From NCBI GenBank assembly GCA_033675265.1, contig JAUJYZ010000996.1, positions 107,001-171,000 on the forward strand: DNA of 64,000 nt. The letters run 5' to 3'. Both the position numbers and the translations under genes were made by a program. Position 1 is the stretch's first letter, and every line of letters starts with the position of its first letter. Positions 1-62,449 of this stretch are shown one piece after another. The notes under the pieces were generated by a model. It was not told the DNA's origin. It did no database searches and saw only the letters and a list, made by a program, of their open reading frames with translations. This DNA comes from Actinostola sp. cb2023. Taxonomy: Eukaryota > Cnidaria > Anthozoa > Actiniaria > Actinostolidae.

Positions 1-573
1 ATCATTAGTGTACCTGTCACAGTTCTTCATGCACCTAATCAATCATTAGTGTACCTGTCACAGTTCTTCATGCACCTAATCAATCATTAGTGTACCTGTC
101 ACAGTTCTTCATGCACTTAATCAATCATTAGTGTACCTGTCACAGTTCTTCATGCACCTAATCAATCATTAGTGTACCTGTCACAGTTCTTCATGCACCT
201 AATCAATCATTAGTGTACCTGTCACAGTTCTTCATGCACCTAATCAATCATTACTGTACCTGTCACAGTTCTTCATGCACCTAATCAATCATTACTGTAC
301 CTGTCACAGTTCTTCATGCACCTAATCAATCATTAGTGTACCTGTCACAGTTCTTCATGCACCTAATCAATCATTAGTGTACCTGTCACAGTTCTTCATG
401 CACCTAATCAATCATTTGTATACCTGTCACAGTTCTTCATGCACCTAATCAATCATTAGTGTACCTGTCACAGTTCTTCATGCACCTAATCAATCATTAG
501 TGTACCTGTCACAGTTCTTCATGCACCTAATCAATCATTAGTGTACCTGTCACAGTTCTTCATGCACCTAATC
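1..573. repeat. 41-bp minisatellite spanning the mARC exon 5 splice donor
   Basis: About 14 near-identical 41-bp units run from the window edge to about 573. On the minus strand each unit holds the last coding bases of mARC exon 5 (ending AACTGTGACAG) followed directly by a splice donor GTACACTAATG. The copy nearest the gene is the functional exon end at 547. The array therefore repeats an exon-intron border about 14 times. Variants are single substitutions (for example TTACTG for TTAGTG). Confidence 0.93.
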
Positions 574-61900: not shown

Positions 61901-62449
61901 CATAGCCTACCATCGTTACATAGCTATGATACATAGCCTACCATCGTTACATAGTCGTGATACATAGCCTACCATCGTTACATAGTCGTGATACATAGCC
62001 TACCATCGTTACATAGTCGTGATACATAGCCTACCATCGTTACATAGTATTTACTGTTTATTGCTAACAGAATCTCGTATTGACTGACAAACACACCAAA
62101 TTATGGGAGCTGATTGATGCTTGGCACAAAGACTGTCAAACGGCTTCCGCTGCCCTCAAATCGTCCCGACAAGCACCGCGTAAGATGCCTGCCACGCCCT
62201 CGTTATCTGATCCATCTACTCCCACACCATGCAGTACCAGCAATGATGACATCACGGTATGTCCGTCCAGATACACTGGCAATGATGACGTCACGGTATG
62301 TCCGTCCAGATACACACCATTCACGACAATAAGTTATATAAACATTTTGTTTTCTATTCCAGGAACGCGTCAGTCAAGACAGTAATGCAGTGGATAACCT
62401 ACCAAAGTGTCACGTGAGTGGATCAACAGGTGAATCACGGGAAGTATGA
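34909..62449 (+). CDS. NEK9: NEK9/Nercc1-type NIMA-related kinase, 5' exon(s) not found
   Basis: Mitotic Ser/Thr kinase that activates NEK6/7 in spindle assembly. Exons: 34909-35086, 35489-35541, 38490-38560, 38742-38844, 38929-38978, 39763-39828, 41418-41522, 41808-41872, 43344-43394, 43462-43594, 43665-43727, 43793-43937, 49335-49496, 50120-50158, 50235-50281, 52209-52367, 52433-52488, 52572-52624, 53580-53741, 54001-54177, 54291-54350, 55480-55676, 55796-55918, 56936-56988, 57848-57930, 58049-58107, 58267-58320, 62071-62256, 62363-62449. Kinase: VVWKEVNLSK (Lys), HRDIKTMNIFLTK, LGDFGISK, VGTPYYMSPELVQG. RCC1 propeller: FGSDYYGCIGCKNEYG, SWGCGEHGRLGLGSEDD, GSNNFGQLGMNDF, AWGRGDNGRLGL. Tail: two PxWL...A-YI-xD modules, TSVGIQCNV (LC8-like), coiled coil. 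Absent or damaged: glycine-loop exon, the small exon after 39828, and the D-x-W motif in 39763-39828. About 930 residues seen, human 979. Confidence 0.93.
35106..35303 (+). mobile_element. 198-bp MITE with 6-bp target duplication
   Basis: In NEK9 intron 1. Begins AGGGGTGCTGAATGGTC and ends GACCATTTGACACCCCT, inverted ends. AGTAAT flanks both sides (35100-35105, 35304-35309). The interior is built from CGAGACT / AGTCTCG words that also fold back. A truncated opposite-strand copy lies at 11767-11941. No ORF. Confidence 0.85.
35573..35779. mobile_element. Short inverted-repeat element
   Basis: Left end TGCCACATTCACACCAAGGC, right end GTTTTGGTGTGAATGGGGCA. Internal TTTAAACTTGGTGTGAACTT repeats the same motif. 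It lies in the NEK9 intron directly before the 33-bp array. Confidence 0.6.
35780..38418. repeat. 33-bp minisatellite in a NEK9 intron
   Basis: About 80 units of TCTAACACATCTTACAAGTC TAAGATATACCTT. Clean blocks (36900-37140, 37440-38400) alternate with scrambled ones (36240-36880). Its unit resembles CTAACACATCTTACAACGAC at 35548-35572, just past the exon 2 donor, a possible seed. Confidence 0.95.
38979..39760. repeat. 37-39-bp minisatellite starting at a NEK9 donor
   Basis: About 20 units of GTAAGTATGCATACTTGGTG TGGTGTCATTATAATGACT. The first copy begins exactly at the donor of the exon 38929-38978, so every unit repeats the GTAAGTA splice-site sequence, though not exon bases. Words from this repeat (GTGTCATTATA) appear inside the following exon. 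Confidence 0.94.
39914..40153. mobile_element. 240-bp TIR element in a NEK9 intron
   Basis: Left AGGGACCTTTAGATCCGACT and TACGAAATCTAGTACGAGTA pair with right TACTCATACTAGATTTCGTA and ATCGGATCTAAATGGTCCCT. It lies between the exon at 39763-39828 and the degenerate GTGATG region. No coding capacity. Confidence 0.75.
40154..41345. repeat. Degenerate GTGATG / GTCATTATAATG low-complexity region
   Basis: A mixture of GGTGATG triplet-like runs and fragments of the 39-bp unit (GTGTCATTATAATGACTGTA). No regular period. The short NEK9 exon expected after 39828 should lie here and was not found. Confidence 0.85.
41880..43310. repeat. About 175-bp tandem array whose unit is a foldback
   Basis: Eight units. 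Each contains ATATCACATATACCAAAAGG and, in the other half, CTATTGGTGTATGTGATATG, with AACAATAGAACAAATCAAAC facing GTTGTTCTATTGTTTGAAGG, so each monomer can fold on itself. It lies between the NEK9 exons ending at 41872 and starting at 43344. Confidence 0.9.
43947..49225. repeat. 87-bp minisatellite, about 60 copies
   Basis: The largest array in the window. Unit: GAGAACAATAAGTCCTGAGA, ACAATGTTGATGTAACACTA, TAATACATTGTTTG, then (TC)n, then TGTCCCCACCCCTACCCCC. Two alternating variants (AATGTTGATG versus AAGGTTTATG; CCCCTAGAG versus CCCCAGGAG) show higher-order patterning. It starts 10 bp after the donor at 43938. Each unit has a (TC)n-CCCCAG stretch like a polypyrimidine tract plus AG. Confidence 0.96.
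49497..49990. repeat. 59-bp array repeating a NEK9 exon end, acceptor-like site and donor
   Basis: Eight units: GTAAGATTTGTATGTGTAAC, AGGTTTCATGTGGGGATTGC, CATATAGTTGCTTTAACTG. The last 40 bases copy the end of the exon 49335-49496 (VSCGDSHIVALT), with AGC changed to TTG in every repeat copy. Each copy is bracketed by AACAG and GTAAGA, so each could be a 37-39-nt decoy exon. Confidence 0.95.
50340..52195. repeat. 31-bp minisatellite in a NEK9 intron
   Basis: About 58 units of GTTAGTAAGGTATATATTTA TTAATGTCATT. The unit contains AAGGTATATA, similar to the exon donor AAAAG|GTATAC at 50281. It ends 13 bp before the acceptor of the exon at 52209. Confidence 0.95.
52588..53578. repeat. 71-bp array repeating a NEK9 exon end and donor
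   Basis: About 13 units. Each contains ACACACTCAGCCATCATTGA CG, the end of the exon 52572-52624 (KTHSAIID), then the donor GTAAGCTGTACAGTC. The last copy ends at GTACTTTACAG, the acceptor of the next exon (53580). Confidence 0.95.
53850..53996. repeat. ATT trinucleotide microsatellite
   Basis: Almost pure (TTA)n, about 48 repeats, ending 5 bp before the TTGTAG acceptor of the exon at 54001. Confidence 0.97.
54485..55450. repeat. GATGATAATGATAGT degenerate array
   Basis: Variable units of GCGCTGATGATAATGATAGT with GATGATGATG or GATGATGCTGCTGCT inserts. All frames read long only because of the triplet structure. It lies in the NEK9 intron before the exon at 55480. Confidence 0.93.
55930..56600. 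mobile_element. Pogo/Tigger-like end with expanded 15-bp array
   Basis: CAGTGGAACCTCGATTTAAC at 55930 matches the terminal repeat style of pogo/Tigger elements (family knowledge). It is followed by a second end-like block (AGAACCTTGATATAACGAAC) and then about 33 copies of CCCCGGTATAACTAA (56025-56515), closing with GCGATATAACGAATAA. The array appears to have grown from the AT-rich TIR motif. It lies in a NEK9 intron. Confidence 0.65.
57040..57565. repeat. 17-bp TTATTGTACAGTATATG minisatellite
   Basis: About 31 units with ATATG/AGATG variants, in the NEK9 intron between 56988 and 57848. Confidence 0.96.
57694..57811. repeat. 59-bp two-copy tandem duplication
   Basis: GAGGGTACATGACGTATATA, GATGAACAACTGTCTTCTAG and ATGAATCCTGCTTTACA occur twice back to back in a NEK9 intron with no differences seen, so the duplication is recent. 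Confidence 0.9.
58365..62050. repeat. 31-bp minisatellite, about 118 copies
   Basis: Units of CATAGTCGTGATACATAGCC TACCATCGTTA in the NEK9 intron before the penultimate exon. A CATAGCTATGATACATAG variant is scattered in clusters. Copies are clean at 58400-60180 and 61640-62045 but scrambled at 60180-61640. Confidence 0.97.
62241..62318 (+). repeat. Two-copy 39-bp duplication of a NEK9 exon end and donor
   Basis: CAATGATGACATCACG|GTATGTCCGTCCAGATACAC-TGG is followed at once by the same sequence with ACG in place of ATCACG's AC-A (GACGTCACG). The first GT (62257) is taken as the donor; the second GT lies 39 bp on and keeps the frame open (VCPSRYTGNDDVT added). Confidence 0.9.

What the first reader, a model, noticed from the sequence alone, without database searches (positions are those of the whole stretch)
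1..62318. Minisatellites built on exon ends and splice donors, repeatedly, in all five genes
In at least eleven places the tandem unit contains the last 15-40 coding bases of an exon plus its GT donor: mARC (1-573), ADAT3 (copy at 8930-9092), mucin (11325-11550), XPO5 (16590, 23795, 25805, 27836, 29993) and NEK9 (49497, 52588, 62241). Three more arrays start at or just after a donor (38979, 43947, 50340). The units are unrelated in sequence and differ in length (36-76 bp), so a single transposon cannot explain this. A process that duplicates DNA at exon-intron borders (for example R-loop or co-transcriptional breakage, U1-linked template switching, or selection tolerating duplications that keep one good donor) would. 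Each array offers many competing 5' splice sites, which could also affect U1 binding and polyadenylation.
Basis: partly seen in the sequence, partly recalled or inferred. Interest (0 to 1): 0.9.

Follow-up and report, generated by a model that had tools for sequence, protein, structure and literature searches.

The report
Minisatellites duplicating splice donors (mirages)
In this sea-anemone DNA, ten introns start with tandem repeats of 36 to 76 bases that re-copy the end of the upstream exon together with its splice donor, likely the same thing as the 'mirages' known from amphioxus genes, and likely tolerated because the splicing machinery would take the first of several equal donors.

Summary
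The window is from the sea anemone Actinostola: its NEK9 exons match a deposited Actinostola sp. cb2023 protein. Ten arrays span a donor, in four genes: mARC 1, mucin-like 1, XPO5 5, NEK9 3. Near-exact tandem copies of the junction occur at 10 of 70 modelled donors but 1 of 75 acceptors (2 of 75 with one diverged pair).

A donor-seeking process is not required. With arrays collapsed, introns are short (median 114.5 nt), so random units straddle about 4-4.5 donors and about 4 acceptors. If exon and acceptor hits are purged, 5.3-5.7 donor hits are expected against 10 seen (P 0.02-0.035; 0.11-0.15 for NEK9 plus XPO5). The asymmetry fits a published rule: the first of two equal tandem donors is used, with no such rule for acceptors. 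The one multi-copy acceptor array is in frame and stop-free.

This is a known kind ('mirages'), dense here and, within my searches, unreported in cnidarians. No RNA, reads or whole genome could be examined.

The parts
1..573 (-). mARC intron array, 41-bp unit, runs off the window; donor at 546, 27 nt of exon in the unit
   Evidence: gene name from reading the ORFs, no homologue search
11330..11542 (+). mucin-like gene array, 51-bp unit, donor at 11351; exon model uncertain
13774..33220 (-). XPO5 (exportin-5), modelled exons
15010..15690 (-). diverged two-copy duplication of an XPO5 acceptor with an inserted element bearing 18-bp inverted ends between the copies
16590..18177 (-). donor-spanning array, 72-bp unit (42 exon + 30 intron), donor 18146 at the edge copy, which is damaged
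19499..20080 (-). acceptor-spanning array, 48-bp unit, 12 acceptors from 20073 to 19533, all in one frame and stop-free
23815..25252 (-). donor-spanning array, 76-bp unit, donor 25233
25809..26596 (-). donor-spanning array, 72-bp unit, donor 26579
27838..28402 (-). donor-spanning array, 57-bp unit, donor 28357; open in frame through the array
29999..30570 (-). donor-spanning array, 36-bp unit, donor 30548
34909..62447 (+). NEK9, modelled exons
38979..39769 (+). array of 38-bp units from the donor itself (TRF start 38990); the next exon resembles it
41893..43305 (+). array of 172-bp units starting 20 nt after a donor
43947..49222 (+). array of 87-bp units starting 9 nt after a donor
49455..49988 (+). 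donor-spanning array, 59-bp unit, donor 49497
50335..52189 (+). array of 31-bp units starting 53 nt after a donor
52601..53573 (+). donor-spanning array, 71-bp unit, donor 52625
62240..62315 (+). two-copy donor-spanning duplication, 39-bp unit, donor 62257; a possible early stage

Best explanation
Ten introns in the window begin with a tandem array whose unit contains the last 17-45 bases of the exon and its GT donor, and they are likely 'mirages': ordinary local tandem duplications in genes with very short introns, kept at donors because the spliceosome is predicted to take the first of several equal donors. Shown here: the arrays, their overlap with modelled exon ends, 109 decoy donors of which 107 score at least as high as the first, and a donor to acceptor imbalance of 10:1 (10:2 with one diverged case). 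Also shown: in the 7 arrays where both neighbouring exons could be read, the first donor joins them in an open frame in 7 of 7, whereas the second donor meets a stop in 5 of 7. Inferred: slippage or template switching duplicates a 36-76 bp segment anywhere in the compact gene. If it spans a donor, the copy beside the exon keeps its native flank and is used, so the rest becomes intron and can expand. If it spans an acceptor, copy choice is not ruled by position, exon sequence is added, and the event is usually lost unless the unit is a multiple of three without stops, as in the one multi-copy acceptor array. The arrays are likely young or homogenised.
For: Junction copies 10 of 70 donors, 1 of 75 acceptors. 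Collapsed introns short, 68 introns, median 114.5 nt. Filter model expects 5.3-5.7 donor-spanning of 27. First donor open 7 of 7, second donor stopped 5 of 7. Decoys as strong as the first, 107 of 109. Acceptor array: 12 acceptors all in frame, joined reading open for 255 residues. Designed human reporters: equal tandem donors, first predominantly used; no such preference for acceptors (PMC6783452, section 7 read). Amphioxus mirages reported not to disturb splicing (PMC3087553 and PMC3902484, passages). Decoy consensus differs from the exon by 5 bases in 234 over nine arrays.
Against: Ten donor hits still exceed the filter model slightly (P 0.023-0.035). Two donor arrays (27838, 62240) and one acceptor pair (15.0-15.7 kb) show that the filter is not the whole story. 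In amphioxus both kinds of boundary are duplicated, so the donor bias may be chance (10 against 1, binomial P 0.012). [quoted passage not shown] not held). No RNA shows which donor is used. The window was picked as extreme.
Confidence: 0.6

Rival explanations
1. A duplication process is drawn to donors, for example transcription- or U1-linked breakage or template switching at the exon-intron border.
For: 10 donor-spanning arrays against 3.9-4.5 under random placement (P 0.002-0.006) and 5.3-5.7 under the filter model (P 0.023-0.035); positive sense GC skew in 8 of 10 donor arrays.
Against: NEK9 plus XPO5 alone: 8 against 5.1-5.5, P 0.11-0.15. Donor plus acceptor hits together, 11, are close to the random 7.6-8.8. 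Many arrays also start 9-98 nt inside the intron, 11 of 28. GC is low in nine of ten.
Confidence: 0.17
2. The decoy donors are useful: arrays are kept to regulate splicing, U1 binding or transcription time.
For: Decoys remain as strong as the first donor, 107 of 109; human IFI6 uses repeat units as donors (PMC4526556, passages).
Against: A stop precedes the first decoy in 7 of 10 arrays as computed. Arrays occur in unrelated housekeeping-type genes with unrelated units. Near-identity of copies can come from youth.
Confidence: 0.08
3. The arrays are partly assembly artefacts of the DBG2OLC/Pilon draft.
For: The exon edge at 18146 has no open frame to its donor and the NEK9 exon at 39763 departs from homologues while resembling the array. 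One amphioxus mirage was mis-assembled in its draft.
Against: Copies carry their own variants. Nine of the ten donor arrays are under 1.6 kb, below the 20-kb PacBio library insert size, and the tenth, mARC, runs off the window. Read evidence was not available.
Confidence: 0.06
4. The arrays created these introns (intron gain by tandem duplication).
For: Proposed for amphioxus mirages (PMC3087553, passages).
Against: The units hold intron sequence. In the nine arrays whose acceptor is in the window the array ends 6-1980 nt before that acceptor, and collapsing the arrays leaves ordinary short introns.
Confidence: 0.03

Closest known systems
Amphioxus 'mirages' (Adh3, globins BflGb6 and BflGb9, TnC, PGBD5)
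   Different: Here in a sea anemone, ten donor arrays in one window, strong donor bias; in amphioxus both boundaries are reported. Instability and splicing are untested here. The original Adh3 paper is not held.
Human IFI6 (6-16) minisatellite
   Same: A minisatellite that offers several splice donors; the cited 1995 paper is titled so (seen as a reference and a one-sentence summary).
   Different: There repeat donors are used in transcripts; here use of decoys would mostly add a stop. The primary paper is not held.
Intron gain from tandem duplication (Rogers 1989; Zhuo 2007; Gao and Lynch 2009)
   Same: Tandem copies containing splice signals.
   Different: Here existing introns are expanded and no new intron is evident. 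These papers were seen only as references.

Membership tests
[quoted passage not shown]
   10 donors, 1 acceptor with multi-copy arrays, on my exon models
Amphioxus-type 'mirage' | Unrelated units of different length at different genes | tested here: met
   36-76 bp for the donor arrays; one 19-bp cross-hit among 23 arrays
Amphioxus-type 'mirage' | Both 5' and 3' boundaries can be duplicated | tested here: met
   10 donors, 1 acceptor array plus 1 diverged acceptor pair
Amphioxus-type 'mirage' | Regular splicing of the mRNA despite decoys | not testable with these tools
   No RNA; the reading frame favours the first donor, 7 of 7
Amphioxus-type 'mirage' | Length instability between alleles or cells | not testable with these tools
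   One haploid assembly; no reads
IFI6-type donor minisatellite | Repeat donors used in transcripts | not testable with these tools
   No RNA; a stop precedes the first decoy in 7 of 10
Intron gain by tandem duplication | Unit made of exon sequence, its copies forming both ends of a new intron | tested here: not met
   Each of the ten units carries intron sequence, and nine of nine arrays with a visible acceptor end before it
Introner or other transposon | Related sequence at many sites | tested here: not met
   Only one 19-bp cross-hit among 23 arrays of the window; the genome outside the window was not searched

The most novel reading that the evidence does not exclude
Tandem duplication in this animal is drawn to the exon-intron border itself, so that 5' splice sites are birthplaces of minisatellites, each seeding a race of up to twenty near-identical donors that only strict first-donor choice keeps harmless.
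Probability: 0.17. Interest if true: 0.85.

Novelty: new member of a known kind. Interest (0 to 1): 0.5.

Why it matters
If it holds genome-wide, the anemone offers natural competition tests in which 2 to about 20 equal donors face one acceptor, something otherwise built by hand. The donor to acceptor ratio of such arrays would measure how directional splice-site choice is in an animal and show how splicing rules decide where minisatellites can grow. It would also mean that mirages are not a lancelet peculiarity but may recur in animals with compact introns and active tandem duplication. About 57% of the gene spans here (31,610 of 55,937 nt) is array, so this process largely sets intron length in these genes.

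Tried and rejected
Common element: 23 array units blasted against each other, one 19-bp hit. Intron birth: units contain intron sequence and end before the acceptor. R-loops: positive sense skew in 8 of 10 donor arrays but low GC in nine of ten, and skew is confounded with exon sequence. Half-decayed mirages: with a 12|12 window and 600 bases, donor junctions are 0-2 mismatches (10 of 70) or 9 and more (60 of 70); one donor falls to 7 with a 20|4 window; at 6 kb one acceptor with 4 mismatches appears, XPO5 15035, so I do not claim that old ones are absent.

Rows dropped before the array counts (28 kept): microsatellites of period 4 or less; the coding mucin array 10786-11098; 15164-15236 inside a transposon-like element; low-scoring rows such as 2273-2312, 2720-2774, 20775-20818 and 41593-41653; arrays outside the gene spans. 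Sites dropped: donors of two XPO5 exons and of one ADAT3 exon that I could not define, and a NEK9 micro-exon not found. ADAT3 was left unresolved. One search failed through a variable clash and was redone. Exon models are mine, from homology and splice motifs; splice scores use a rough matrix typed from general knowledge.

Full report
What the window is. A NEK9 query built from window exons found NEK9 of other animals and a partial protein of Actinostola sp. cb2023 (P0005) that lines up with the window exon by exon, four segments at 100%. The organism is a sea anemone (Actiniaria) whose draft genome was made from PacBio and Illumina reads with DBG2OLC (PMC10803348; part 1 of 2 of the text and search passages read). 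It reports 62.4% repeats and used TRF; the words minisatellite, satellite, RNA-seq and transcriptome do not occur in its main text. NEK9 lies on the plus strand. XPO5, recognised by human exportin-5 and coral homologues, lies on the minus strand, as does mARC. The names mARC, ADAT3 and mucin rest on my reading of the ORFs; I ran no homologue search on them.

Observation. TRF lists the arrays. I placed 70 donors and 75 acceptors from homology and splice motifs and asked, without using TRF, whether the 24-mer across each junction recurs nearby. It does at 10 of 70 donors and 1 of 75 acceptors (Fisher P 0.0036). A looser limit adds one diverged acceptor pair with a transposon-like element between its copies (10 of 70 against 2 of 75, P 0.0145). 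The ten arrays include 27, 21, 31, 19, 17, 45, 22, 42, 24 and 17 nt of exon by TRF edge. In the XPO5 array at 16590-18177 the regular unit carries 42 exonic nt reading LVHIVTKDYMDVF, which aligns to coral XPO5.

Is it more than chance? I collapsed each of 28 arrays to one unit. The remaining introns are short (68 introns, median 114.5 nt, mean 225, 41 at most 150 nt). Units dropped at random span 3.9-4.5 donors (P of 10 or more 0.002-0.006) and 3.6-4.2 acceptors (P of 1 or fewer 0.11-0.055), against 10 and 1 seen. The sum, 11, is near the random 7.6-8.8, so boundaries as such are not strongly favoured. If exon and acceptor hits are purged by selection, 5.3-5.7 of 27 survivors should be donor-spanning; 10 has P 0.023-0.035, units of 30 or more only P 0.019, and for NEK9 plus XPO5 alone 8 has P 0.11-0.15. 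Tolerance therefore explains much of the pattern, and a small donor-directed excess is possible. The window was picked because it looked extreme, which inflates any excess.

Which donor would be used? For 7 arrays both neighbouring exons could be read. The first donor gives an open join in 7 of 7 (for example GNLLV|PMFDEL and IID|VYGRL). The second donor gives a stop in 5 of 7. For 16590-18177 the edge copy is damaged and has no open frame to its donor, but a regular copy joins in frame to the next exon (DVFFLACTF). mARC lacks its next exon in the window and the mucin-like gene has no homologue, so these two were not tested. Across the ten arrays there are 109 decoys, 107 scoring at least as high as the first donor. 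A stop precedes the first decoy in 7 of 10 as computed, and in 16590-18177 by hand reading of the regular copy; 27838-28402 and 62240-62315 are open.

The acceptor array is telling. XPO5 19499-20080 has 12 acceptors with the same junction sequence, spaced 48 nt except one 60, so all are in one frame; joined to the upstream exon, the reading from the first acceptor is open for 255 residues. It is the kind of acceptor duplication that would do least harm.

Why donors? A study of designed human reporters found that when both tandem donors carry the consensus the first is predominantly used, while tandem acceptors show no such preference (PMC6783452, section 7 read). That rule predicts what is seen: donor duplications become silent intron, acceptor duplications add exon sequence. 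The link to this animal is inference.

Age. In nine arrays the exon copy and the consensus of the decoys differ by 5 bases in 234 (16590-18177 left out because its edge copy is damaged). The species' reported heterozygosity is 0.9%. The arrays are therefore likely young or kept alike by exchange. With a 12|12 window and 600 bases no half-decayed donor copy was seen.

What is known. Tandem repeats across exon-intron boundaries were named 'mirages' in amphioxus Adh3 and reported in globin, TnC and PGBD5 genes, without disturbing splicing as far as tested (PMC3087553 and PMC3902484, passages; the original Adh3 paper is not held). A minisatellite in human IFI6 provides donors (PMC4526556, passages). 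Tandem repeats are also reported to lead to new introns in human duplicated genes (PMC2812944, passages). My searches of one open-access library, for minisatellite with sea anemone and intron, and for Actiniaria with intron, tandem repeats and minisatellite, returned no report of this. The claim that it is unreported in cnidarians rests on those searches.

Limits. No RNA, no reads, one window.

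Noticed in passing
window 39763-39828 (NEK9 exon after the 38979-39769 array): The exon reads YNQKSEYVGTWCVSLYEVLTLK where Nematostella has YNQKSDMWAVGCVLYEVLTLK, and its DNA aligns to the neighbouring array (score 44; 300 shuffles, maximum 31). Seven other exon-array pairs do not exceed their shuffles. Either the array overwrote the exon by conversion, or polishing did.
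   Followed up: partly
window 18130-18230: The exon-edge copy of the XPO5 16590-18177 array is interrupted by a piece of unit and has no open frame to its donor, while internal copies keep the coding sequence.
   Followed up: partly
window 15010-15690, minus strand: An element with 18-bp inverted ends sits between two diverged copies of an XPO5 acceptor region: an old acceptor duplication split by a transposon-like insert.
   Followed up: partly
window 7990-8100 and 8900-9120: Two imperfect copies of an ADAT3 exon end flank part of a TTTAGTCCCTTTCATTCTCTCAT array; neither gives a clean donor (sequence).
   Followed up: partly
window 10786-11098: A coding 15-bp array (STTTQ/STTPQ repeats) in the mucin-like gene: an ordinary mucin-type repeat, not splice-linked.
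   Followed up: no
window 27838-28402: The 57-bp XPO5 array is open in frame through all its copies, so use of later donors would lengthen the protein instead of stopping it.
   Followed up: partly
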